Below, piece by piece: positions 42,475 through 63,598 of a stretch of 64,000 nt of DNA; the first letter of the stretch is position 1, and every line of letters starts with the position of its first letter. A program made the translations under genes and the position numbers. This DNA is from Desulfobacteraceae bacterium (GTDB lineage: Bacteria; Desulfobacterota; Desulfobacteria; Desulfobacterales; Desulfosalsimonadaceae): positions 1 to 64,000 of the forward strand of contig JABZFM010000006.1 of assembly GCA_014237465.1 (NCBI GenBank), in the 5' to 3' direction. Below the pieces are notes generated by a model. The model made no database searches, was not told the DNA's origin, and was given only the letters and a program-made list of their open reading frames with translations.

Positions 42475-43239
42475 TTACCAATCCAAATCCTTTTCATATC
42501 CGGTTTTGATGAGGATCTGGCCGAACTGTTCTTTGAATTTTATTTTTAAACGCTCATCAAAATAATTTTCCCAGTCGCCCACGATCCCCTTGCGATGATG
42601 AGACATCAAATCCTCCTGCCCGGGTTTCCGGCCTGTTTTTTTCTCAAACGAGTGAGCCTTAATAATCTTTTTTAACTTACGGTCAGTTGTCGCAAAGCCG
42701 CAGTGATTGAAAATTTGTTTAAAACAGCTGAACTGGTCCGCTCTTAAATCCTCGTACCTGATCGTCAGCATATCATCCGTCTGCGCCCAGGAACGCTGAA
42801 TTTCAGCAGACGGCCATCGCTTTGTCATCATGGAGAGGAGACCCTCTCTGGTTTCCATGGAAGCCATCCGCTCCCTGGCTTTTTGCATATTTTCATGCAA
42901 AATCGGGTGACTGTAACGAATACTGAAATACTGTGAGATCAGGGTGTCCCGAAGGTCCCGGATAATATAAAAACTACGATTGGCCTCCGGAAGATTAAGG
43001 CTGAAAAAATCATCCCGCGTCAGGTACACGCATGGATACACCTTACCGGCAATTATCGAATGTTCAGTGACATGCTTTACACGGGGCAGCGGTTTAACGA
43101 TTCTCCGTTTCACGGCTGATTTTAATACCGCCAGGACCCACTGGGACCCTGCCTTATAATGGGTGAGGTGAAATATGGTATGTTTTTTAAATTGACCGGC
43201 TGATTTATCTTTTCTGTTAATTATTTTATTAATAAACAT
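42475..43239 (-). CDS. Sulfotransferase family protein
   Basis: The PAPS 5'-phosphosulfate loop is HYKAGSQWVLAVL, and the 3'-phosphate motif is IIRDLRDTLISQYFS. A RYEDLRADQ block and the HRKGIVGDWENYF segment follow, as in sulfotransferases acting on sugars or lipids. A longer form with an upstream start exists, but the paralogue next door begins at a point equivalent to the start chosen here. The product of 254 residues shares most motifs with that paralogue, so tandem duplication is clear. It likely sulfates the surface polysaccharide. Confidence 0.85.
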   Translation of the reverse strand: MFINKIINRKDKSAGQFKKHTIFHLTHYKAGSQWVLAVLKSAVKRRIVKPLPRVKHVTEHSIIAGKVYPCVYLTRDDFFSLNLPEANRSFYIIRDLRDTLISQYFSIRYSHPILHENMQKARERMASMETREGLLSMMTKRWPSAEIQRSWAQTDDMLTIRYEDLRADQFSCFKQIFNHCGFATTDRKLKKIIKAHSFEKKTGRKPGQEDLMSHHRKGIVGDWENYFDERLKIKFKEQFGQILIKTGYEKDLDW

Positions 43240-43295
43240 GTCAAACCTTTTGAGGTCTATCTGGCACCTGCGCAAAAACCAAGCTTCCCGATCAT

Positions 43296-44057
43296 CTACC
43301 ACTGATCATCTTTTTCATAACCGGTTAATATCAACAGCTCACCAAAGCGTTCTTTAAACACCTTTTTTACCTGATCATCAAAATAATTTTTCCAGTCTCC
43401 GGAGACACCTTTTCGATGGTGTGAAAGGACACTTTCCTCCCCGGGTTTCCGGCCGGATATCTTTTCAAATGAATGTGCTGAAATTGCCGCTTCGATATTC
43501 ATCTCATGGTCATCAAACCCGCAATAGGATAGAATTCTCTTAAAACCGGCATACTGGTCTTGAATCAATTCTTCATACCGGATTAACAATCCGTTTCCGT
43601 CATTGATCCATGAGCGCTGAATTTCTGCTGATACATGCAGCCTTTTGTCCATCAGATAAATCAGGCCATCCCCCATCTCCATGCCGGCAAGCGTATCGCG
43701 TAATTTCTGCATGGCCGGGTTCATTATCTGGTGGCTGTGTCTGACACTGAAATACAGGGATACCAACGTATCCCGCAGGTCCCTGATGATGATAAAAATA
43801 CGGTTTTCTTCAGGAAGCGCGAGTTCACGAAACTCCTGGGCCGGCAAATAAACACAGGGATAGATGCTGCCCGGAACAATTGGCTGCCGGGTCACATGGG
43901 CCGCTCCGGCCTCCGGGGTGATGATCCGGTCCCTCCCCAGCTCCCCCAGTACCGCATACACCCATTGCGAACCGGCCTTGTAATGGGTGATGTGAAATAT
44001 CGTCGGCAACCCGGTTTCCGGCTGTTGTTTTTTTTTAAACAGAGACGACAAAACCAT
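43296..44057 (-). CDS. Sulfotransferase family protein, tandem paralogue
   Basis: HYKAGSQWVYAVL is the 5' PAPS-binding loop, IIRDLRDTLVSLYFS the 3' motif, and HRKGVSGDWKNYFDD the C-terminal segment. Block order and spacing match the adjacent gene. The conserved K of the PAPS loop is present. It is predicted to be cytoplasmic and to transfer sulfate from PAPS to a sugar hydroxyl before export. No PAPS synthesis genes are in the window. Confidence 0.85.
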   Translation of the reverse strand: MVLSSLFKKKQQPETGLPTIFHITHYKAGSQWVYAVLGELGRDRIITPEAGAAHVTRQPIVPGSIYPCVYLPAQEFRELALPEENRIFIIIRDLRDTLVSLYFSVRHSHQIMNPAMQKLRDTLAGMEMGDGLIYLMDKRLHVSAEIQRSWINDGNGLLIRYEELIQDQYAGFKRILSYCGFDDHEMNIEAAISAHSFEKISGRKPGEESVLSHHRKGVSGDWKNYFDDQVKKVFKERFGELLILTGYEKDDQW

Positions 44058-44110
44058 CTGATAATATAACCTTATTATTTAATCTATTACTTGTGATCTC
44101 GTGATGAGCG

Positions 44111-44920
44111 CTACCAGCCAAAATCCGTTTCATAGCCCGCATCAATCAGGAGCTGGCCGGCCTGGGATTTGAATAGCGCCTTATGATTGTCAGTAAAACT
44201 TTCTTTCCATCTTCCGATAACACCCCGGTTAAAGGTATAGGTTCCCCCGAACAGGGAATCACAAATGGAGTCGATGGTATCTGCCGAACAACCCGCTCCA
44301 AGAGATTTACATAGATCCTCCAGGACACCCCGCTGCCTGTCCCTGGTGCTGCCGCCTTTTTCACCTACCAAGTTTTCAAATAATACGACAAAGGCATTTG
44401 CTTGCGTTTTCCATTTGAGATGCCAGTTTACCAGCCTGGCGATTGACGGCTGAGGCCTTGTTTTTGTGATTTCACTGGTGACACCCTGAATTCCGCATGT
44501 AATCCTGTAATCAAGATCCGTATCTTTAAAAAACGGATAGAGCAGATGGGTTTCTTCCTTTGCAATAAACTCCGCCCAGGAAAGCACCACATCCCTGGGG
44601 TCCCGAATAGCCACCAGAATTTTATAATTCAGGCTTTTTAATGCAGCATGCGTTTTGGGATGATAATTCATGTGTGCCGTCAGGAATTGCCCGGACGGTA
44701 TAGACGCCAGCAGCCGTTCGATCCAGACAATATCGTTCTGAATATCAATATCCTCACGACCTTCAACCGGATAGTCAATGTCCGGATCTACAAACCTTGC
44801 AATGGACCGCCGCTCAAGATGCGTGCCGCTGTGGGCAATGCCTGGCAGCATCGTCAGCGCCCGGGCAAGGAGATGTGTCCCTGACTTGGGCAGTGAATCC
44901 ACAAAAATCGGATAATTCAT
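44111..44920 (-). CDS. Sulfotransferase domain protein, distinct subfamily
   Basis: The 5' loop PKSGTHLLARAL is at residues 11-22 and the 3' motif AIRDPRDVVLSWAEF near 105. The C-terminal RGVIGRWKESFTDNHKALF completes the PAPS site. The sequence differs from the two downstream paralogues except in these motifs, so it likely has another acceptor. It precedes them in the operon and lies after the ABC exporter genes. Confidence 0.85.
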   Translation of the reverse strand: MNYPIFVDSLPKSGTHLLARALTMLPGIAHSGTHLERRSIARFVDPDIDYPVEGREDIDIQNDIVWIERLLASIPSGQFLTAHMNYHPKTHAALKSLNYKILVAIRDPRDVVLSWAEFIAKEETHLLYPFFKDTDLDYRITCGIQGVTSEITKTRPQPSIARLVNWHLKWKTQANAFVVLFENLVGEKGGSTRDRQRGVLEDLCKSLGAGCSADTIDSICDSLFGGTYTFNRGVIGRWKESFTDNHKALFKSQAGQLLIDAGYETDFGW

Positions 44921-45001: not shown

Positions 45002-45772
45002 CTATTTTCGGGATCGTTTCCGCTTATATACTTCTATTGCCTCCCCGACGTCACCGTCAAAGATGATATGCCCTCTCTCGAACACGGTGGCATTATCACA
45101 AAAAGATTCAATGATGGGAGGACTATGAGACACCAGCAGCATGGACATCCCGTTTTTTAAAAGTTCTGATATATGCTCCAGGCATTTCTGCTTGAATGCC
45201 GCGTCCCCCACGCTGATCGCTTCATCAACGATCAAAAGATCCGGCTCCAGGCACGTATAAATGCCAAATGCCAGGCGGGCAAGCATTCCACTGGAATATG
45301 TCCGGACCGGCCGGTCAAAAAACGGACCGACCTCCGCAAAATCAATAATCCGGTCCATCCGGCGGTCAATTGCATCCTTTGAAATATCCATAAGCGCTCC
45401 CAGGACATACGCGTTTTCCCTGCCGGTAAAATCCTGCTTGAACCCGCTGCCCATGGTCATGATGGCACCCACACGACCCCGGATGAAAGCGCTTCCCGAG
45501 GACGGCTTTAACGTACCAACCAGAATCTGAAGCAGGGTACTTTTACCGGCCCCGTTGTGTCCCAGAAGTCCTCTGGCTTCCCCCTGTTTCAGATCAAAAC
45601 TCACATCCTGAAGCGCCCAGAATTTTTCAAAAAAATTTCTGTTGCGCCAAATTTTTTGCTTTATGCGGTCCCACGGACTGTTATAAAGCGGAAACATTTT
45701 GCTGATATGCTGAACAGATACCGTCAGGTCATTATTTTGAAATGACTCAAGGTCCGGAATGTTAGATGACAT
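45002..45772 (-). CDS. wzt: Polysaccharide ABC transporter ATP-binding protein (Wzt/KpsT type)
   Basis: Walker A GHNGAGKST, signature YSSGMLARLAFG and Walker B LLIVDEAISVGD are present, in the order of the O-antigen exporter ATPase family. GFKQDFTGRENAYV is a family block. The protein ends soon after the ATPase core (about 256 residues), so there is no C-terminal carbohydrate-binding domain that would recognise a capped O-antigen. Substrate recognition would lie elsewhere. Its ATG overlaps the end of the permease gene. Confidence 0.92.
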   Translation of the reverse strand: MSSNIPDLESFQNNDLTVSVQHISKMFPLYNSPWDRIKQKIWRNRNFFEKFWALQDVSFDLKQGEARGLLGHNGAGKSTLLQILVGTLKPSSGSAFIRGRVGAIMTMGSGFKQDFTGRENAYVLGALMDISKDAIDRRMDRIIDFAEVGPFFDRPVRTYSSGMLARLAFGIYTCLEPDLLIVDEAISVGDAAFKQKCLEHISELLKNGMSMLLVSHSPPIIESFCDNATVFERGHIIFDGDVGEAIEVYKRKRSRK

Positions 45773-46640
45773 CGGCAAATTCTCTTTTGTAATACATGAA
45801 GACTGCATAGCCCAACATCATAACGCCGATTGACGAAATAAAAGTGATATTCAGCCAGAACCAGTCCGGCGGGTGGCCTTCCATAAACACACGACGGGCA
45901 TTCTCAATAATAGTGGCTAACAAATTCAGTCTTAAAACCCATTCTAATTGATCAGAGAGTGCTTCCGTAAACCGTTTTAAGGGAAAAATGACCGCTGATA
46001 ACAGAAAAAACACTTGTATCAGACTCTGTATCAGATTATTGACATCCCTGTAAAATACACCCAGGGCTGCAATAATCCATGAAATCCCGGCAACAAAAAA
46101 GACCAGTGGCAGATATAATAACGGCAAAAATATTATTGTCCAGCTCACGGATCCGGATTTAAACAATTCCAAAACTATGAGAATACCCATTCCAATCATT
46201 GAATGCACGACAGCGACACCGATTCCGATAAGGGGTATGATTTCAATGGGAAAAGCAATATTCTTAACATAGGTTTTATTGATCCACATTAAACGGGGGG
46301 CCTTGCCAATCGATTCGGCAAAAATGTTAAACAAAATAAACCCGCATAATATCATCATTCCCACCTCAAGGTCGGAATCCAGCCCCCAGACAACTTTTTT
46401 ACCACCCAGCAGCATGGAAAAAATTAACGTAAAAACCGCAAGGCGAACAAGGGGAATAATCCCTGCCCAAAGAATACCCAGCGCCGATCCCCTGTATCGA
46501 TCATTAATCTCCCATAATATCGACTGACCCAGCAACTGACGATACCGAAAAATCTGCTTAACCAGATGACTCGGCGAGAGATACCGCCTGAACGGGATTC
46601 TGTTTTTACTCGATATGACTGTAATATTTTGTGAATTCAT
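45762..46640 (-). CDS. wzm: Polysaccharide ABC transporter permease (Wzm type)
   Basis: The 292-residue ABC-2 type permease has six hydrophobic segments and the family block QSILWEINDRYRGSALGILWAGI near the N-terminus. YRDVNNLIQSLIQVFFLLSAVIFP lies before the last segments. It forms the channel that flips the undecaprenyl-linked glycan across the inner membrane. The ATPase gene follows with an 11-base overlap. Confidence 0.92.
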   Translation of the reverse strand: MNSQNITVISSKNRIPFRRYLSPSHLVKQIFRYRQLLGQSILWEINDRYRGSALGILWAGIIPLVRLAVFTLIFSMLLGGKKVVWGLDSDLEVGMMILCGFILFNIFAESIGKAPRLMWINKTYVKNIAFPIEIIPLIGIGVAVVHSMIGMGILIVLELFKSGSVSWTIIFLPLLYLPLVFFVAGISWIIAALGVFYRDVNNLIQSLIQVFFLLSAVIFPLKRFTEALSDQLEWVLRLNLLATIIENARRVFMEGHPPDWFWLNITFISSIGVMMLGYAVFMYYKREFADVI

Positions 46641-55080: not shown

Positions 55081-55241
55081 GTAAAAAGTCAGATTTCTAT
55101 GGCTAAGTTAAAAGTTCCACCAATCCCGTAAAATTTGGCAAGGCGTAGTGATTTTTCAAGCAAGAAATCATACATATAATATCTTAATTGGCTGAAAAAT
55201 CAATACAACGCAGTAGATGGGACTTTTTGCGACGCCATCAA
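55081..55241. mobile_element. MITE-like element with inverted arms, complete-looking copy
   Basis: The left arm GTAAAAAGTCAGATTTC (55081-55097) and right arm GACTTTTTGCGACGCCATCA (55221-55240) are partly inverted copies around AAAAAGTC. The 160-base interior has no coding capacity. The TCA at 55238-55240 is the TGA stop codon of the minus-strand glycosyltransferase fusion gene, exactly as in the copy at 25737-25807. It separates that gene from the downstream GT2 gene within the operon. Confidence 0.6.
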
Positions 55242-57166
55242 TACTTGAACAATCCGGCACGGTAAAGCTTCTGAAAGAAAACATGCCGGGAAAGGTATTT
55301 TTTAATATTCTGATTAATCTCAGCTTCTGAAACCATCCGCCCGAGACATCTTTCTCTTAAGCGCTGCATCTCTTTTTCTCCCTGATCGGATATTTCCGCA
55401 GATGTTTTCTGGTGGGGGTGGACCCTGAATGCCCCCAGAAACCGGGGCAGACGGACTATTTTTGCACCGGCTTCCCGGAATCTCAAAATCAGATCCCAGT
55501 CCATGGCAAATTTAAAATTTTTATCAATAAACCCGCCGGCTTTTTCCCAGATCTCCCGCCGCCAGAACATTGTTTCCTGCGGTATATAGTCCGCCCAGGA
55601 CAATATTTCATCATCATGGGGCGGCATTACCCAGCGGCCGATTTCCTGGTCATATTCATCCACCAGCACCCTGTGCCCATAGACCACATCAACATCCGGA
55701 TGTTTTGCAAAATAATGCGCCACATAGTGCAGTGCGCCCGGCAGCAGCAGATCGTCGGAATTCAAGTAAGCCATGACATTTCCGAAGGCATGGGAAAAGC
55801 ATTGGTTCAATGCGTCTGACTGGCCCTCATCCTTTGTTGACTCCCATCGTTTCAGGCGGTCTTCATATTTTTTCAGGATATCCACTGTACCATCATCAGA
55901 CCCGCCATCCTGGATAAGATACTCCAGCTTCGGATATTGCTGCTGAAAAACACTTTTAATAGTCCGCTCAATAAAGCCCGCCTGGTTGTAGGACGGGGTG
56001 ACAATGGAAATTAACGGCAGACCGCCTGCAGGAATACTTTTTTTCTGTTCTTTATAATACTTTTCGGGAATTTTAACCGGCCGGGGCGGATAATGATAAA
56101 GCACCCCCAGCCGCGGCTGCAGCCATAATTTAATTAATTCCTTAAACCGCCGTTTACGCAGCGAATGAATCGCATTTTCCTGTTCTCGGATCACCAAAAG
56201 ACGGGATTCAGCGATTTCCTCTGTTTTTTCAAGCAGCCTGTCTTTATCTATGATCAGCGTATCAAGGGTTTGAATGCGGTTCTGCTTCTCTTCAATCACG
56301 TCCCGCAACGCATCTATTTCCACTTTAAACCCGGCAAGGAGATCTTCTTTTGCAGATTCAAACTGTTTAATAATATAAAGCCGCTGCTCTGCCACAGAAG
56401 TGATATTGTTTATTTCCTGCTGCTTTAAATGGACTTCACTTTCCCTGGCCTGTGTTTCTTTGACCAGCATTTTATTTTCAAGGCTTAAAGCGTTGATTGC
56501 TTTTTCCTTGGCTTCCAGGTCAGCGATCACATCATTCGTCTGCCGGTACATGTCCGCAATGGTCAGCCAGTCAACCCCGTTCTGATGTCCGTATTCCCGA
56601 ACCTGCTCTTTAATCTGCTCCGGAAAATAAATGATAATGTCATTTAAGACCATTAATTCATGGCCACTGCTTTTTTCACATAAAACCACAATAATCTCTT
56701 TTAAATCAGGCCATTGGGTATAATCATGAGGAGCACCGGGCGGGCATAAAAACAGGCGGGAATCATCGATTAAAACCACACTGTCTTTGTTTATCGTATC
56801 AATCGCCTTGAGTTCATCAAGCAGGGAACACTGGGATGTTTCACCTTCAGTGGCCTGGGCGTCACACCAGTGGGAATCCAGCCAGAACAATACGGACTTG
56901 CCGCTGATATCCGGTTGTAATCGCTTGATGACATCAATTGCATTCCCATGGATAATCTGAACCAGCGGATCATCAGCAAAGCGTTCTTTTGAAAAATTAT
57001 AAAAGTATTCAGACAGTTCCACAGAGTAAAATCGATTAAAATAAGGTTTTACCCGCTCAATGGAGTCCCCTTTGTACGTGCCGGTTTCCACAAAGACTTC
57101 AAAGGGTAAATGCCGGGCTAAAAACGCCACCAGCTCCGTATCAATTGAAAAATGTATCGCTCCCAT
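55238..57166 (-). CDS. Methyltransferase-like domain / coiled coil / family 2 glycosyltransferase fusion
   Basis: Residues 1-200 resemble a class I methyltransferase-type fold: FVETGTYKGDSIERV as motif I, YSVELSEYFYNF, and LFWLDSHWCDAQATEGET. Residues 205-350 are a coiled coil with two copies of a 14-residue motif, SVAEQRLYIIKQFE and EIAESRLLVIREQE. The GT-A domain starts near 380 (SIVTPSYNQAGFIERTI; LIQDGGSDDGT; YLNSDDLLLPGAL). Such fusions suggest that methylation and sugar transfer occur on the same nascent chain. The stop codon is formed by a repeat element. Confidence 0.88.
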   Translation of the reverse strand: MGAIHFSIDTELVAFLARHLPFEVFVETGTYKGDSIERVKPYFNRFYSVELSEYFYNFSKERFADDPLVQIIHGNAIDVIKRLQPDISGKSVLFWLDSHWCDAQATEGETSQCSLLDELKAIDTINKDSVVLIDDSRLFLCPPGAPHDYTQWPDLKEIIVVLCEKSSGHELMVLNDIIIYFPEQIKEQVREYGHQNGVDWLTIADMYRQTNDVIADLEAKEKAINALSLENKMLVKETQARESEVHLKQQEINNITSVAEQRLYIIKQFESAKEDLLAGFKVEIDALRDVIEEKQNRIQTLDTLIIDKDRLLEKTEEIAESRLLVIREQENAIHSLRKRRFKELIKLWLQPRLGVLYHYPPRPVKIPEKYYKEQKKSIPAGGLPLISIVTPSYNQAGFIERTIKSVFQQQYPKLEYLIQDGGSDDGTVDILKKYEDRLKRWESTKDEGQSDALNQCFSHAFGNVMAYLNSDDLLLPGALHYVAHYFAKHPDVDVVYGHRVLVDEYDQEIGRWVMPPHDDEILSWADYIPQETMFWRREIWEKAGGFIDKNFKFAMDWDLILRFREAGAKIVRLPRFLGAFRVHPHQKTSAEISDQGEKEMQRLRERCLGRMVSEAEINQNIKKYLSRHVFFQKLYRAGLFKY

Positions 57167-57174
57167 AGGACTGT

Positions 57175-58146
57175 TTACTCACTGTTTCTTAATTTATTAT
57201 CAAGTTGTTGAATAATTTCACCCCGTTTTTCCGCTTCTTCCGTCAGGTGATTGATCAGCTCAAGCCGCTGTTCACAAACGCGATAAAGCGCGTCTATCTT
57301 TTCAGTCAACTGTTTTTCGGTTTGGCTTTCAACGGCTCTGATTTGAGCGTCTTTTTTGCCGGCCATCTCAAAAATCTGTTTTTCACTTGAAATGACCGCC
57401 TGTTGAAGTTCTTTAAAGGCGCCATGATACAGCTCGTTATTAATGAAAATCAGATTTCCCCACTGTTTTTCCAAAAAAACAGCCGGACCAAATGAAATTA
57501 ACTCAAAATCCGCCAACCGTTTAATCGCCATATAATGGTCATATCCCAGCGCGTTTTTCACTTCGGCAATCAACCCTTCGGGGGCGGCCGCAGACCATCC
57601 GGCATAAAGCCCTTGCGTAAAAAATTCACAAATCAGGACCTCCGGCAAAACGCCGGCCATCCCCTGAATCACCTGCAGATCATTGCCTTCGGTATCCATC
57701 TTAAGGATCCCGATATCATTTCCAATAATCCCTTCATTTAACAGGCTTTCAAGACTTCTGCAGTTCACCGGAATCTCTTTTTGATGGTTTACCCGGGAAT
57801 CATCGGACAAATAATGCAGGGAGTGGTAATAGTCCATCGGTTCCCCATTCTCATCAACGGCAATATGTAAAGATGCCTCCCGGTCTTTTTTATCAATGGC
57901 AAAATCAAAAAATAATGAACCACTGTTCTCAGTTAACCGCATCAGTTCCGGATGATGTTTCGGGCAGGGCTCAAAAAGCGTCCCTGTGAAGCCGAATTCC
58001 ATTAACTGCCTTGCAAAGGAGCCTTTTTCCGCTCCCACATCGATAAACGTCTTATTTTTTATATAGGGTAATAAAATTTTGAGAATCTTAAATTCAGATT
58101 CCTGGGCATACAGTTCCTCTTTTGCCCCGGGGTGGTCAGTGTTCAT
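57175..58146 (-). CDS. FkbM-type SAM methyltransferase with C-terminal coiled coil
   Basis: The FkbM block order is visible: FIDVGAEKGSFARQLMEFG (motif I), LFEPCPKH, IGILKMDTEGNDLQVIQGM and LICEFF. These enzymes O-methylate sugars. The last 80 residues form a charged helix with the 14-residue repeats RVCEQRLELINHLT and EEAEKRGEIIQQLD, like the coiled coil in the two neighbours. It is eight bases upstream of the fusion gene, so the two are co-transcribed. Confidence 0.9.
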   Translation of the reverse strand: MNTDHPGAKEELYAQESEFKILKILLPYIKNKTFIDVGAEKGSFARQLMEFGFTGTLFEPCPKHHPELMRLTENSGSLFFDFAIDKKDREASLHIAVDENGEPMDYYHSLHYLSDDSRVNHQKEIPVNCRSLESLLNEGIIGNDIGILKMDTEGNDLQVIQGMAGVLPEVLICEFFTQGLYAGWSAAAPEGLIAEVKNALGYDHYMAIKRLADFELISFGPAVFLEKQWGNLIFINNELYHGAFKELQQAVISSEKQIFEMAGKKDAQIRAVESQTEKQLTEKIDALYRVCEQRLELINHLTEEAEKRGEIIQQLDNKLRNSE

Positions 58147-58158
58147 TTATATTTCCAA

Positions 58159-59040
58159 TCAAATCTTTTCGTCTGAATGATGAAATTTATTTATAATATC
58201 CAGACGTTCTTCACAAATATCATGCAGTTTATCAATCAAGGTTTTTCGTTCCTTACATATTCCCATCAACTCATTATTATTGTTTTGCAGCTGTTTCACC
58301 AGAATGATCAACTCGTCAATTATAAAATCAATATCCGGCGAGGGGGCAGGCTTTTGATCCAAAGATGATGAGAATGCGTTGTATTGCAGATCAGCCATCA
58401 GCTGATGATGCTGCTTATTAAATATATAATCGGTTGCCCGGGTCCACTCTTTTCCCGGTTTAAACCCACGGTTTTTTTGGTTAAAAAAATTAGGCTCATA
58501 GGTTTGCAACTTTTTCACGGGATTTTCCCATTTTTTTATTTTCCCTTTGTAATGGATAAAGTCTGCTATTTGAGCCAACCGGTCGTCTTTGATGTCAATA
58601 AGGTCTTCAAAACGGACCAGAAGATGCTTCACGTCCCGGTTGTTCCACTTTTCATAGTGGGTTGACCAGTCCCCGTAATGATCATTGCCAAGAATAATGC
58701 TCACCAGCGACTTGTCAATCCGGTTAAAAGACTGGTGAAATTTCCTGTAGCTCTGAATTGAAGATCTTCCATCCCGAACAATATAAATAAACGCCTGATT
58801 ATCAATCGGATAATTATGGGTCTTCACCAGAAACACCTCAGAAGATGCAATGGCTTTTGAGTAGAATTCCTCCCAGGATTCCGGATATTCCACATGGCCG
58901 ATCAAGTCCGGGTTTGACCGGAAATTGCTCTCATAATCAACCGGCTCATCCGCATATGAATACAAGCCGAAACAATGCCTGCAGATTGTTCGAAACAATG
59001 TATTTCCCGAGCGGGGATATGAAGCGAGCCAAATGATCAT
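58159..59040 (-). CDS. Sulfotransferase with C-terminal coiled coil, first gene of the polysaccharide operon
   Basis: LASYPRSGNTLFRTI (residues 5-19) is the PAPS 5' loop, and YIVRDGRSSIQSYRK near 87 the 3' motif. HLLVRFEDLIDIKD and FKPGKEWTRA follow. From about residue 235 the chain is a coiled coil ending in two 14-residue repeats, GICKERKTLIDKLH and DICEERLDIINKFH. The start at ATG has no upstream alternative. It opens the minus-strand locus, so its promoter should lie within 59041-59180. Confidence 0.88.
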   Translation of the reverse strand: MIIWLASYPRSGNTLFRTICRHCFGLYSYADEPVDYESNFRSNPDLIGHVEYPESWEEFYSKAIASSEVFLVKTHNYPIDNQAFIYIVRDGRSSIQSYRKFHQSFNRIDKSLVSIILGNDHYGDWSTHYEKWNNRDVKHLLVRFEDLIDIKDDRLAQIADFIHYKGKIKKWENPVKKLQTYEPNFFNQKNRGFKPGKEWTRATDYIFNKQHHQLMADLQYNAFSSSLDQKPAPSPDIDFIIDELIILVKQLQNNNNELMGICKERKTLIDKLHDICEERLDIINKFHHSDEKI

Positions 59041-59946: not shown

Positions 59947-62454
59947 TTACATATTGGCGCCGGTGAGCATTTCCACACTTAACTTTCCGTTTTTTATATT
60001 CCCAAACAGATAAAATCCGCCAATAGGGGCCTGCTCATTTTCCTCAAACTCGATAAAAGAGATATCTGATGCTGAATCACCAAATTTTGACCGGACCGTA
60101 AATATCTCTTTTTCCCCGGCGCCAAGGGACATTGTTGTCATCATCAGGTCCTCTCCGGCACGGCCATTGCCGTCATAGGGCTGTACCGACACAGTGACCG
60201 GATAATTATTGGGGTTGCAGATGCATATGCCGGTCCAGAAATGTCCGCCCTGCCCGGCATAATGGGGAAGCACCAGTTTGCTCTTCAGCATGTCGTCATT
60301 TATCAACGGAAAACTCGCTTCATCCTTGCCGTAGGGAGGGGAATAGGTGTAGTACCCGACAACCGGGTACTGCCCGGTGATTTCAAGCATAGAACGGGCC
60401 GGCTCACCGTCGAACCTGCCGTATTCGCTTGTCAGGTCAATCACCCGTTTTTCAAATGGCGCAAATTCCAGGTCCATATCGTTTGTCTGATCTTCGCCGG
60501 CGACCGAGAAATGCAGGTTCACCGGATTGATCGTATCATTCGGATTGATCAGGGTCAGGTAGGTCCGCCACCAGCCCAGCTGAGGGGTCACATGGGGTAC
60601 AATCAGGGACGTGGTGCCGTCCACCGGCAAAGCAAACAGCGTATCAATGGCATTCCGGCTGCCTACGGAATTTTTTACATACTGATAGGCGGAAAGGATA
60701 TTCCCGTCAGTCGCGATGATATCGATCCACCCCCTCTTGGGAACATGGGAAAACGGGCGGGTTCCCGGAGTAAAGAAATATTTTCCGCCGGGCGCAATCA
60801 CTTCTTCGATATCATCATCCTGCTGGTGGCCGTCAACGTCATATATGCGGATAGTGATACCCGCCTCATCAAAGGATTCGTTGAGCACTGATCCTTTCAG
60901 ATTCCCAGCAGCCGCAATATCAGCAACAGTACCCGGTATCACCAGATGACTGCCGCTTGCCTTGTCCTGAACAAATCCGGCCATGGGATTCTGATCCAGG
61001 GCAAAAAGATTAAGCATGTTTAAGGGCTGATTGGAAATCAGCATCAAAGAATCCGAATCTCCGTATTCATGGGATCGCCACGGCAGGTCGTCAAACATGA
61101 CCACCTGCTTTTCATAAGGGGCGAAATCCACAGGCCCCAACAATGTCTGAACCGGGCGTCCGTCCGGATCAGAAGTCACCAGGGTGACATCTTCCACCAT
61201 CTCATCACCGGCATTAAACATCACGAAACCGGACCATGGACCGCTTTTAGGGATGTACGGAACATTCTGATGAAATGCGGTCAGTTTTGAAATAGTCATT
61301 GTATAGATATTGGGATCGCCGGTGTAATCATCCTGAGTCATCGATATGGTATACGGCGGATTTCGCAGCTCCAAAGTAAATATGGTCGGCTCCTGAGAAT
61401 CCAGGACCCGGGAGGCTGCCGGCTCTCCCAAGATATCTGAAACAACAATATTTATATCCTCATCGCTGGTATCATCTTTTGCGACTTCAATGGAAACTAT
61501 ATCACCGGATTGACCCTGCAATACATACCGGTCCTCATCCAGCAGAACCAGATGGTAGGTCCCCGGGTTGATGGAAACAGCCGCGCTTTTTCCTGTTTCC
61601 AGAAAATCATCACTCGCCTGGGCCAGGCGCCGGACTTCGTCACAGTCGATATACGGGCTTTTAGGGCCGGAGCTGAACGGAAACGATAAATTATCCGGAT
61701 GGTTATCAACACTGTTGCCGGTCCATTGGCCGCCGGTGATCTCTCCCTGCGCATTTAAATCAAGAGTGTATGTATATGTTATAAAGCGCTCATAGGTTCC
61801 AACATAATCCGGAAACACATTGTCATCGGCAAAATAGATGGTCACCCTGATTGATCGGGATAAACCGGATGTCGAACTGGTCATTTTATACCCGTAAATC
61901 GGGTAATACCAGACTTCACTTCCGGCATCCAGGTCCGCCAGAAACGGAATTTTCTGGGTGCCGATATAATCCAGCAGCCAGAGATGGAAATTCACCGGAT
62001 CATCGCCGGACACATTTGTCTGAATGGCATAATCATGACATAAGAGGAGCAGTCCTTTTTTATCCCCCACCCGCCAGATGAAATTGTCTTCTGTGGACGG
62101 CAGGATTTCATAATCTTCCATCACAGCGGCCCGTGCCCACACCGGACAGAGTCCATGCCAGCCCGGAGCGTTGGGATCATAATAATAATACAAATACCAG
62201 TCTTTCAAATCTCCGTCATCACTGTTGGTGGTCCACAAAAGGTACTTTTCAATGGGCGCCGGATGCCCCCGGTAATCAGATCCGGTGGCCAGTCCACCCT
62301 TATTATACGGCCACCAGTAGCCGGACCAGGGGATGGTATCAGTTTTAATCACGTCGGCAATTGCTTCAGACAGGGAAAAAGGAATCCCGGATATTACTAT
62401 TATGACAAAAACAATATAAACAAAAAATTTTCGGATCACATTCAATAATTTCAT
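59947..62454 (-). CDS. Secreted protein with transglutaminase-elicitor-like N-terminal domain and beta-sandwich repeats
   Basis: A signal peptide is followed by IPWSGYWWPYNKGG, HPAPIEKYLLW and GWHGLCPVWARAAVMEDYE, with Cys103 in the position of the catalytic cysteine of oomycete GP42-type transglutaminase elicitors. A later LLLLCHDYA may give the histidine and aspartate. Downstream, three or four Ig-like modules repeat a pattern of IPGT or VPHV, an aromatic WW or W-T-G, NPND/NPNN and a final DGNGR turn. The product should be exported. Transglutaminase activity is inferred only from motif likeness. Confidence 0.6.
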   Translation of the reverse strand: MKLLNVIRKFFVYIVFVIIVISGIPFSLSEAIADVIKTDTIPWSGYWWPYNKGGLATGSDYRGHPAPIEKYLLWTTNSDDGDLKDWYLYYYYDPNAPGWHGLCPVWARAAVMEDYEILPSTEDNFIWRVGDKKGLLLLCHDYAIQTNVSGDDPVNFHLWLLDYIGTQKIPFLADLDAGSEVWYYPIYGYKMTSSTSGLSRSIRVTIYFADDNVFPDYVGTYERFITYTYTLDLNAQGEITGGQWTGNSVDNHPDNLSFPFSSGPKSPYIDCDEVRRLAQASDDFLETGKSAAVSINPGTYHLVLLDEDRYVLQGQSGDIVSIEVAKDDTSDEDINIVVSDILGEPAASRVLDSQEPTIFTLELRNPPYTISMTQDDYTGDPNIYTMTISKLTAFHQNVPYIPKSGPWSGFVMFNAGDEMVEDVTLVTSDPDGRPVQTLLGPVDFAPYEKQVVMFDDLPWRSHEYGDSDSLMLISNQPLNMLNLFALDQNPMAGFVQDKASGSHLVIPGTVADIAAAGNLKGSVLNESFDEAGITIRIYDVDGHQQDDDIEEVIAPGGKYFFTPGTRPFSHVPKRGWIDIIATDGNILSAYQYVKNSVGSRNAIDTLFALPVDGTTSLIVPHVTPQLGWWRTYLTLINPNDTINPVNLHFSVAGEDQTNDMDLEFAPFEKRVIDLTSEYGRFDGEPARSMLEITGQYPVVGYYTYSPPYGKDEASFPLINDDMLKSKLVLPHYAGQGGHFWTGICICNPNNYPVTVSVQPYDGNGRAGEDLMMTTMSLGAGEKEIFTVRSKFGDSASDISFIEFEENEQAPIGGFYLFGNIKNGKLSVEMLTGANM

Positions 62455-62474: not shown

Positions 62475-62502
62475 GGGGTTAGGGGTTAGGGGTTAGGGGT
62501 CG
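62475..62502. repeat. Heptanucleotide tandem repeat (GGGGTTA)3-4
   Basis: Three exact units of GGGGTTA and one variant follow each other. On the minus strand the array encodes the last residues (PLTPNP) and the stop codon of the four-helix-bundle gene. Confidence 0.8.
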
Positions 62503-62862
62503 GATCCTATTCTTAACAGACTTTCGTAAGCCATTAATCATCCTTCCAATTTCTGCTGTTTTATCAAGTCCATTATTTACCTGATGTTCATCGATATAAT
62601 TTAAGCGTCTGGATATCTGAACATGTGTTTCGAGTTCCGCAAGAGAAGCGTAAGCCATTGACAAATATTGCAGAAACTCTTTGCTATGCTGTCTCTGACG
62701 CCCCTCGGCAATATTTGACGGTACTGATACGGCGGCACGTTGCAACTGACTTGCAAGCCCATATGTCTCATTTTTCGGGAATGCTTTGGTCAGCTGGTAA
62801 CGCGCCACAACTAAATCCATACTTTTTTGCCAGACCTCTAAATCCCGGTAACTCTTTATCAA
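62479..62862 (-). CDS. Four-helix-bundle protein (S23/IVP type)
   Basis: The protein begins at TTG as MIKSYRDLEVWQKSMDLVV, the standard family start, preceded by AGGAG at 7 bases. PSNIAEGRQRQHSKEFLQYLSMAYASLAELE is the core of helix 3. These 120-residue bundles are found in 23S rRNA intervening sequences and as accessory proteins elsewhere; their task is poorly known. A longer in-frame extension on the 5' side is only translated heptanucleotide repeat and is rejected. The C-terminal residues also come from a repeat. Confidence 0.85.
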   Translation of the reverse strand: MIKSYRDLEVWQKSMDLVVARYQLTKAFPKNETYGLASQLQRAAVSVPSNIAEGRQRQHSKEFLQYLSMAYASLAELETHVQISRRLNYIDEHQVNNGLDKTAEIGRMINGLRKSVKNRIRPLTPNP

Positions 62863-62877
62863 TTGAATTCTCCTGCC

Positions 62878-62912
62878 ACCTGATCCCTGATCCCTGACAC
62901 CTGATCCCTGAT
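62878..62912. repeat. Heptanucleotide tandem repeat (CCCTGAY)5
   Basis: Five units of C/A-CCTGAT or CCTGAC form a second copy of the array at 59912-59946. It lies between the four-helix-bundle start and the stop codon of the next gene, five bases from the latter. Confidence 0.8.
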
Positions 62913-62917
62913 CCCCC

Positions 62918-63598
62918 TTACCGCACCCGCCACGACTGCCGGGTCGGGGTTTCTTCATATATCCACCAGTCGTCGCCCGGAGCCCACAATTGCTTAACCA
63001 GCAATGCGTTTGTCCTCAGATTGACCGCCTGGATCATCACCAGTCGGCCAAATGACTGAGCATCGCCTGGGAGCCATCCTTTTTGCACTGCATCTTTCGG
63101 GCTGATTTCCATACTTTCAACCTGTACCCGGTCAACAAACGTCTGCCCGCCCGCCTGGCGCCTGACTTCGTAAATGACGGCATCCTTGTTGCTGTCAAGC
63201 ATTTGTGCAACCGGCAGGAGATCACACGGCACATTGGCCCCGGGCACTATCAAAATATCCTGCTGCGCAATCGCATGAGGAACCCGGGTGGTATTGTTCC
63301 AGATTATCCGATTTCCGGAACCGGTGAAAAACAGCCGGCAAATCAATTGCTGATTGTCTGCCAGATAAAAAGACAGAAACCTTTCACCTGCACTGTCTTT
63401 TTCCGGATTCACCGTCCATTCGACCAGACTGCTATCGACAGAATCATCCACATCATCGGAAGGACCCGACATAATTACAACCGAGGCTGACGGCTGATAC
63501 GGCAGCGCCATGGAGAAATGGGTTGACATCAACCCGTACAAACAGGCGAACATCAACAGAATGAATGTTTTCCAATATTTTTTGTTAAAGCATTTCAT
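62918..63598 (-). CDS. Hypothetical secreted protein
   Basis: The N-terminus is a signal peptide (MKCFNKKYWKTFILLMFACL) cleaved near STHFSMA. The mature part is acidic and beta-rich, with two cysteines (in LICRLFF and VPCDLLP) that could form a disulfide. An ISPKDAVQKGWLPGDAQ helix and DDWWIYEET near the end have no recognised family. A start 24 bases upstream is in frame but lacks a ribosome site. It lies upstream of, and on the same strand as, the transglutaminase-like gene. Confidence 0.65.
   Translation of the reverse strand: MKCFNKKYWKTFILLMFACLYGLMSTHFSMALPYQPSASVVIMSGPSDDVDDSVDSSLVEWTVNPEKDSAGERFLSFYLADNQQLICRLFFTGSGNRIIWNNTTRVPHAIAQQDILIVPGANVPCDLLPVAQMLDSNKDAVIYEVRRQAGGQTFVDRVQVESMEISPKDAVQKGWLPGDAQSFGRLVMIQAVNLRTNALLVKQLWAPGDDWWIYEETPTRQSWRVR

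What the first reader, a model, noticed from the sequence alone, without database searches (positions are those of the whole stretch)
55238..59040. Shared 14-residue coiled-coil repeat in a sulfotransferase, a methyltransferase and a glycosyltransferase fusion
The motif x[IVA][AC]ExRxx[IVL]I appears as DICEERLDIINKFH, RVCEQRLELINHLT and SVAEQRLYIIKQFE in three adjacent, otherwise unrelated enzymes, in all three more than once. It could join them in one assembly that adds sugar, methyl and sulfate to the same chain and measures its length, as the coiled coil of WbdD does for O9a O-antigen.
Basis: partly seen in the sequence, partly recalled or inferred. Interest (0 to 1): 0.65.

Follow-up and report, generated by a model that had tools for sequence, protein, structure and literature searches.

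The report
Shared helical tail on polysaccharide-modifying enzymes
Three neighbouring enzymes that probably decorate and build one surface sugar chain carry the same short helical repeat, a rare module also found on other sugar-modifying types of enzyme in distant bacteria, which may dock the enzymes together, though this has not been shown.

Summary
The strict motif occurs four times in six frames of the window, all in the three named genes; shuffled versions of 14 cluster proteins give 0.005 on average. Only the glycosyltransferase fusion has it twice strictly; the second copies in the other two are degenerate, and the fusion's second copy is near background. The sulfotransferase and FkbM tails match beyond a coiled-coil pattern. 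The repeat is rare: 3 of 331 sampled genomes of the order, 1 of 345 of the phylum. Elsewhere it sits on another sulfotransferase, FkbM enzymes, a pyruvyl transferase and a GSCFA protein. The window FkbM tail is 59% identical to an Acidobacteria FkbM tail whose catalytic part is only 28% identical. The locus is an ABC-transporter polysaccharide cluster, and the fusion has the layout of known chain terminators (methyltransferase fold, long coil, GT2), with coils of 61 to 181 residues in eight relatives. Docking of the tailed enzymes onto this coil is my best explanation, inferred only. Against it: two same-genus clusters keep the fusion beside tail-less neighbours, and the window's Wzt lacks the cap-binding domain.

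The parts
58162..59040 (-). Sulfotransferase (Sulfotransfer_1) with a C-terminal helical tail
   Evidence: Pfam PF00685 E 2.6e-8; no PDB relative by phmmer at E<=0.01
58162..58278 (-). Sulfotransferase tail, residues 255-293: one strict copy (core 58192-58221) and one degenerate copy 14 residues before it (about 58234-58263)
57178..58146 (-). FkbM-type methyltransferase with a C-terminal helical tail
   Evidence: Pfam PF05050 E 7.1e-13
57178..57300 (-). Methyltransferase tail, residues 283-323: one strict copy (core 57253-57282) and one degenerate copy 14 residues after it (about 57211-57240); predicted helix
   Evidence: model poor overall, mean pLDDT 40; residue blocks 291-320 have 68-87
55241..57166 (-). 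Fusion: methyltransferase fold - long coil - GT2 glycosyltransferase
   Evidence: Pfam PF00535 E 2.8e-25; model and fold search
56567..57166 (-). Fusion N-terminal domain, residues 1-200: class I SAM methyltransferase fold of the O-methyltransferase type
   Evidence: pLDDT 90 or more in 14 of 20 ten-residue blocks; VIA-align Z 15.4, rmsd 3.3, 165 aligned to 4oa8; profile match to TrmR and COMT chains; Pfam Methyltransf_24 only at E 0.15
56117..56563 (-). Fusion coil, about 149 residues, with two strict motif copies (56369-56398 and 56189-56218)
   Evidence: helices 200-272 and 281-353
55367..56017 (-). Fusion GT2 domain
   Evidence: Pfam; PDB chondroitin synthase E 8e-18
45762..46640 (-). Wzm-like ABC-2 membrane protein of the same cluster
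   Evidence: PF01061 E 9.9e-12
45002..45808 (-). Wzt-like ATPase, 268 aa, without a Wzt_C match
   Evidence: ABC_tran and two weak AAA matches only
42475..44920 (-). Three further sulfotransferase genes without the tail
   Evidence: PF00685; last 45 residues read and no strict motif

Best explanation
The three genes encode part of the cytoplasmic assembly line of an ABC-transporter-dependent, sulfated and methylated surface polysaccharide. The fusion is the scaffold: an N-terminal O-methyltransferase-type domain and a C-terminal GT2 held apart by a coil of about 150 residues, as in coiled-coil terminators of Wzm/Wzt systems. The sulfotransferase and the FkbM methyltransferase end in a short helix made of one shared, modular 14-residue repeat; the fusion coil carries the same motif, once clearly and once weakly. 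The tails most likely bundle with that coil (or with one another) and so hold the decorating enzymes beside the growing chain. Shown: shared tail, its modularity, its occurrence on glycan-type enzyme families, the MT-coil-GT2 layout, coil length variation. Inferred: helix bundling, which partners pair, membrane position, any role in chain length, and the sulfated and methylated product itself.
For: Four strict motifs, only in these genes (expectation 0.005). A profile of four sulfotransferase tails alone scores the GSCFA protein 30, the pyruvyl transferase 26-28, the Acidobacteria FkbM 26, the G009 FkbM 23.5, the G009 second sulfotransferase 20.9 and the window FkbM 17-18 bits; the best of 177,635 distinct PDB sequences has 14.5. 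Tail 59% against catalytic part 28% identity between window FkbM and Acidobacteria FkbM. The block recurs: tailed ST and tailed FkbM adjacent in G009; tailed ST - hexapeptide transferase - fusion in G006 and G219; tailed FkbM next to the fusion in Acidobacteria. In G219 it directly follows an ABC-2 membrane gene and a Wzt with Wzt_C. Coil lengths 61, 61, 115, 142, 142, 149, 149, 181 between aligned outer domains in eight fusions, the window's included. Layout matches ORF6 of K. pneumoniae O7 (PMC11231755).
Against: No interaction was or could be tested. G007 and G008 keep the fusion with no tail found in the genome. The Acidobacteria fusion has no such motif beside a tailed FkbM. Of ten fusion relatives read, tailed partners occur with 4 of 6 that bear the motif and 1 of 4 that do not: suggestive only. 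The two G255 carriers lie on different contigs and the cyanobacterial FkbM is the only carrier found in its genome; no tested neighbour of these is an exporter of the Wzm/Wzt kind. The window's Wzt lacks Wzt_C. Fusion copy 2 is near the class-shuffle background. With the sulfotransferase-only profile the fusions (12 bits or less) score below the best PDB chain and the cyanobacterial FkbM (13-16) around it.
Confidence: 0.45

Rival explanations
1. The tails only make each enzyme self-associate (dimer or trimer), as the bundle helix makes WbdD a trimer. The shared sequence reflects a common, easily shuffled homo-oligomerisation helix, with no docking between different enzymes.
For: Carriers with no tailed neighbour: the cyanobacterial FkbM is the sole carrier found in G256. 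Fusion motif and tails occur without one another. Removing the C-terminal helix of WbdD gives a monomer (PMC3482155, passages).
Against: The repeat on two or more genes of one locus (ST, FkbM and fusion in G000; adjacent ST and FkbM in G009; ST and fusion in G006 and G219) is not explained by self-association alone.
Confidence: 0.3
2. The tail is a mobile coiled-coil ending spread by recombination among glycan-gene clusters, with a generic role (solubility, membrane edge binding) or little function.
For: Catalytic part and tail have different histories (28% against 59%). The closer Acidobacteria match of the window FkbM catalytic part is a tail-less FkbM-GT2 fusion next door (alignment score 247 against 88). 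Scattered distribution.
Against: In five sulfotransferase pairs the tails are 41-79% and the catalytic parts 47-79% identical, so the tail is kept about as well as the enzyme, and C/A-E-x-R-L-x-x-I recurs in it.
Confidence: 0.2
3. Chance convergence of ordinary coiled coils with heptad patterns; the reader's motif is pattern finding.
For: The fusion's second copy and some pairs (fusion copy 1 with GSCFA 186 of 400, cyanobacterial FkbM with GSCFA 40 of 400, cyanobacterial FkbM with window ST 17 of 400) lie within the class-shuffle range. Some weak profile hits are plainly chance, such as an off-frame hit at E 1.3e-4 in G219. The window FkbM scores only 2 to 4 bits above the best PDB chain with the sulfotransferase-only profile.
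Against: Tails of three STs, the window and Acidobacteria FkbM, the second G009 ST and the pyruvyl transferase give 0 of 400 class shuffles in all 21 pairs among them. Apart from known carriers, no genome in samples of 345, 244 and 148 reached E 0.001.
Confidence: 0.05

Closest known systems
ORF6 of Klebsiella pneumoniae O7 (methyltransferase-kinase, central coil, C-terminal GT2 modules)
   Same: N-terminal methyltransferase, central coil, C-terminal GT2 in one protein of an ABC-transporter cluster (PMC11231755, passages and first part of the Discussion)
   Different: No room for a kinase domain between methyltransferase and coil in the window fusion (coil follows at residue about 200); one GT2 match instead of two modules; tailed ST and FkbM partners are not mentioned in the passages read
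WbdD of E. coli O9a / O8
   Same: Methyltransferase joined to an extended coil that in O9a acts as a ruler and recruits the polymerase (PMC11231755 and PMC3482155, passages)
   Different: No kinase match; C-terminus is a GT2, not a recruitment region; no WbdD chain in the lists of sequence matches in PDB
FkbM methyltransferases, Sulfotransfer_1 enzymes, PS_pyruv_trans and GSCFA proteins
   Same: Catalytic domains are matched by these Pfam families
   Different: They carry the shared C-terminal repeat, which no Pfam match of these proteins covers; none of my literature searches listed a paper that appears to describe it, going by titles and starts of abstracts

Membership tests
Coiled-coil chain terminator of Wzm/Wzt systems (WbdD, WbbB, ORF6-O7 kind) | Encoded in a cluster with an ABC-2 exporter | tested here: met
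   ABC2_membrane and ABC_tran genes in the window, and beside the fusion relatives in G007, G008, G065, G219 and Acidobacteria
Coiled-coil chain terminator of Wzm/Wzt systems (WbdD, WbbB, ORF6-O7 kind) | Modifying enzyme at one end of an extended coil, polymerising GT at the other end or recruited | tested here: met
   MT fold 1-200, helices 200-272 and 281-353, GT2 from about 384; that the GT2 polymerises is not tested
Coiled-coil chain terminator of Wzm/Wzt systems (WbdD, WbbB, ORF6-O7 kind) | Wzt with a C-terminal carbohydrate-binding domain that reads the cap | tested here: not met
   Window Wzt is 268 aa without Wzt_C, likewise G007, G008, G009; Wzt_C is present in G219, G065 and Acidobacteria
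Coiled-coil chain terminator of Wzm/Wzt systems (WbdD, WbbB, ORF6-O7 kind) | Coil length sets glycan length | not testable with these tools
   Coil length differs between relatives; effect unknown
WbdD of O9a | Kinase domain after the methyltransferase | tested here: not met
   Coil begins at residue about 200; no kinase match in Pfam
WbdD of O9a | Detectable sequence relationship of the methyltransferase domain | tested here: inconclusive
   No WbdD chain listed by phmmer or profile against PDB at E<=0.01; profile matches are TrmR, COMT and other methyltransferases
Shared-repeat tail family defined here | Two copies of [CA]-[ED]-x-R-L-x-x-I-x-x-L at 14-residue spacing at the C-terminal end | tested here: inconclusive
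   Both copies close to the pattern in the ST tails of G006 and G219 and in the Acidobacteria FkbM; one degenerate copy in the window ST and FkbM; internal copies about 60 residues apart in the window fusion

The most novel reading that the evidence does not exclude
The repeat is a portable docking code: glycan-tailoring enzymes of unrelated folds (sulfotransferase, FkbM methyltransferase, pyruvyl transferase, GSCFA) gain a place on a coiled-coil polysaccharide scaffold by acquiring one short shared helix, so that a bacterium can change the decoration of its polysaccharide by swapping tagged enzymes, as the change of FkbM for a hexapeptide transferase between ST and fusion in G006 and G219 hints (the hexapeptide transferase itself shows no tail).
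Probability: 0.25. Interest if true: 0.75.

Novelty: new variant of a known kind. Interest (0 to 1): 0.45.

Why it matters
Chain-length control and complex assembly in ABC-transporter-dependent glycans is known from a few model serotypes in which the coil belongs to the terminator itself. A shared helix on separate decorating enzymes would show how sulfation and methylation are coupled to polymerisation, and would give a searchable mark for enzymes that belong to one complex and a possible tag for glycoengineering.

Tried and rejected
Coiled coils of known structure as relatives of the tail: only weak PDB matches (three at E<=1 with A2, two at E<=10 with A3). Phage or plasmid spread of the tail: no match in the phages or plasmids collections, each by one tblastn query, 0 stretches in viral contigs by the tandem pattern, and in 55 IMG/VR loci fetched with the fusion alignment only one weak hit (10.7 bits, E 0.05), dropped as chance. 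Three of the six pattern hits in genome contigs (L042, L045, L047) have no open frame of 60 or more codons with two motif matches and were dropped. Weak profile hits dropped as chance: G219 C247 (off-frame stretch over a histidine kinase-like gene), G219 C136, G255 C113, G254 C6, and four of five Acidobacteria-phylum hits (G1154, G1215, G1238, G1245), although G1238 looks like an MT-coil protein with a single CEERDQTIREL and could be a distant case. The E<=1 hits in other genomes were not each examined beyond a motif scan of their loci. The structure model of the FkbM enzyme is poor (mean pLDDT 40), so only its tail helix is used, with caution; the GT2 half of the fusion model is also poor. 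A heteromer prediction could not be run. WbdD was not seen among the 50 fold-search rows shown, which does not exclude it.
Full report
WHAT IS THERE. The three genes lie on the minus strand as described. Pfam gives Sulfotransfer_1 for 58159-59040, the FkbM domain for 57175-58146 and a GT2 domain in the C-terminal half of 55238-57166. They head a run of minus-strand genes that continues with GT2 enzymes, a large TPR protein, an epimerase, a GT4-type (WecA-like) protein, ABC-2 membrane and ATPase genes (Wzm- and Wzt-like) and three more sulfotransferases, down to 42475. I read this as an ABC-transporter polysaccharide cluster rich in sulfotransferases.

IS THE MOTIF REAL. Shuffling 14 cluster proteins 2000 times gives 0.005 matches per set on average; shuffling only the three coils 5000 times never gave four matches or matches in all three. 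The claim 'in all three more than once' needs degenerate copies in the first two proteins. The other 11 proteins tested have no strict match.

IS IT MORE THAN A COILED COIL. In a test that keeps the residue class at every position and shuffles only within classes, the tails of three sulfotransferases (G000, G006, G219), the window and Acidobacteria FkbM enzymes, the second G009 sulfotransferase and the pyruvyl transferase beat all 400 shuffles in all 21 pairs among them. The cyanobacterial FkbM is less clear (17 of 400 against the window ST, 11 of 400 against the Acidobacteria FkbM, 0 of 400 against the window FkbM and the pyruvyl transferase). Fusion copy 1 gives 0 of 400 with the window ST, 1 of 400 with the window FkbM and 0 of 400 with the pyruvyl transferase, but 12 of 400 with the G006 ST, 41 of 400 with the G219 ST and 186 of 400 with GSCFA; fusion copy 2 is close to background (26 and 56 of 400 against the window ST and FkbM). 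The pairs were chosen after the motif was seen, so the counts are not formal probabilities. A profile of four sulfotransferase tails scores GSCFA 30, the pyruvyl transferase 26-28, the Acidobacteria FkbM 26, the G009 FkbM 23.5, the second G009 ST 20.9, the window FkbM 17-18, the cyanobacterial FkbM 13-16 and the fusions at most 12 bits; the best of 177,635 distinct PDB sequences scores 14.5. So the fusion's link to the family rests mainly on copy 1 and on the exact motif.

WHERE ELSE. One exact-pattern scan of the species-genome collection for two tandem copies gave six stretches; three are real: an Acidobacteria FkbM enzyme (L043), a polysaccharide pyruvyl transferase with four good copies in the uncultured bacterium RBC016 (L044), and a double-FkbM protein of Drouetiella hepatica, a cyanobacterium (L046). 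The RBC016 genome also has a GSCFA protein with three single copies 21 and 31 residues apart. With the ten-row profile A2: 3 of 36 genomes of the family at E 0.01, 3 of 331 of the order, 1 of 345 of the phylum, 1 of 244 of the phylum of the cyanobacterial genome and 1 of 148 of the class of RBC016, all at E 0.001; in the phylum of the Acidobacteria genome 5 of 277 reached E 0.01, of which I keep one. With a consensus peptide, 3 of 241 genomes of the class at E 0.01. The samples overlap and each count includes the centre genome. Profile hits near E 1e-4 can be chance: one lies off-frame over a histidine kinase-like gene. Tested neighbours of the RBC016 and cyanobacterial carriers include a PMT_2 protein, a glycosyl hydrolase 39 and a HlyD protein near the pyruvyl transferase, no glycan gene near GSCFA, and a chloride channel and two dehydrogenases near the cyanobacterial FkbM, so those settings do not show a Wzm/Wzt cluster.

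MODULARITY. The window FkbM and the Acidobacteria FkbM are 28% identical in the catalytic part and 59% (20 of 34) over the tail. The closer Acidobacteria match of the window's FkbM domain is instead fused to a GT2 in the neighbouring gene, without the tail (alignment score 247 against 88). So the tail appears to travel independently of the enzyme. In five sulfotransferase pairs the tails are 41-79% and the catalytic parts 47-79% identical.

THE FUSION. Its N-terminal 200 residues are modelled with good confidence as a class I methyltransferase, nearest to O-methyltransferases and TrmR (Z 15.4, rmsd 3.3, 165 aligned residues); a profile finds TrmR and COMT chains in PDB, while Pfam alone is below its cut-off (Methyltransf_24, E 0.15). 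Nearly invariant residues in 20 aligned sequences include the ETGT motif, D97, H99, D134 and D135; that the aspartates resemble the metal ligands of COMT is recalled, not tested. Two long helices follow (200-272, 281-353), then a GT2 (low confidence there; Pfam; chondroitin synthase match). Seventeen of 231 genomes of the class have a relative of the N-domain, eight of them at E 6e-55 or better: seven are fusions with GT2, and in the eighth (G230) the frame ends after the coil and a GT2-like reading follows in another frame. Across eight fusions with GT2 (the window, G006, G007, G008, G219, Acidobacteria, G065, G130) the coil measures 149, 142, 142, 149, 181, 115, 61 and 61 residues, while the seven others are 44-73% identical to the window protein. 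Variable coil length between conserved ends is what a ruler would show; it could also mean a coil under little constraint. Coil-length variation in putative methyltransferases of group 3 capsule clusters is mentioned in print (PMC13171606, one passage).

DO THE TAILED ENZYMES BELONG TOGETHER. G009 has the tailed ST and tailed FkbM adjacent, a fusion fragment on another contig and a second tailed sulfotransferase beside Wzm- and Wzt-like genes on a third. G006 and G219 have tailed ST, then a hexapeptide transferase in place of FkbM, then the fusion; in G219 these follow an ABC-2 membrane gene and a Wzt with Wzt_C directly. In Acidobacteria the tailed FkbM precedes a fusion relative, near Wzm and a Wzt with a Wzt_C match. 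Against this, G007 and G008 have a tail-less sulfotransferase, a hexapeptide transferase and the fusion, and no tail in the genome by profile at E 0.01; the Acidobacteria fusion has no motif. Of ten relatives read (G000, G006, G007, G008, G009 fragment, G219 with a motif match; G254, G065, G130, G230 without), tailed partners exist in 4 of 6 and 1 of 4 respectively; for G130 and G230 only 4.3 and 10 kb were read.

MECHANISM. I take the fusion as the scaffold and possible ruler, and the ST and FkbM tails as docking helices. What is shown is the sequence relationship and the layout; docking is inferred. The main weaknesses are the clusters with fusion but no tails, the weak second copy, and the missing Wzt_C in the window. 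In known systems the terminator sits at the far end of the coil and the coil protein is a membrane-associated scaffold for the complex (PMC11231755, first part of the Discussion); WbdD's C-terminal region recruits WbdA and its bundle helix makes it a trimer (PMC3482155, passages), which is also a model for the self-association rival.

NOVELTY. Searches of the open-access library listed no paper that, by title and start of abstract, describes a shared repeat on separate glycan enzymes; three of those searches found no paper at all, and subscription papers are mostly not held, so this is weak evidence of absence. I rate it a new variant of a known kind.

Noticed in passing
L068:7533-9551: Acidobacteria cluster has a second methyltransferase-GT2 fusion (FkbM + GT2) directly upstream of the tailed FkbM, so two different MT-GT2 fusions sit in one locus.
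   Followed up: partly
L071:7110-8870: GSCFA-domain protein in RBC016 with three CDER[LF]xxI copies at wider spacing, one of them CDERFAVIREQ, close to the fusion's AESRLLVIREQ.
   Followed up: partly
window 45002-45808: Wzt of the window genus is short (no Wzt_C in G000, G007, G008, G009) while clusters with the same fusion in G219, G065 and Acidobacteria have Wzt_C; the cap-reading domain may have been lost or replaced.
   Followed up: partly
L098:9101-10015: In G230 the methyltransferase-coil frame ends after the coil and a GT2-like reading follows in another frame: a split form of the fusion, or a frameshift.
   Followed up: partly
window 59947-62454: Protein with a transglutaminase-elicitor match; similar genes seem, by eye, to flank the cluster in G007, G008 and G009.
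   Followed up: no
window 62479-62958: 23S rRNA intervening-sequence protein (bAvd-like) with an unusual Gly-rich N-terminal extension, possibly a wrong start.
   Followed up: no
L104-L158: 55 IMG/VR loci encode relatives of the fusion, nearly all of its methyltransferase domain and mostly as proteins of about 200 residues.
   Followed up: partly
L161:598-3069: Genome G1238 (phylum of the Acidobacteria carrier): a protein with a methyltransferase-like N-terminus and a single CEERDQTIREL in a coil, possibly a distant case.
   Followed up: no
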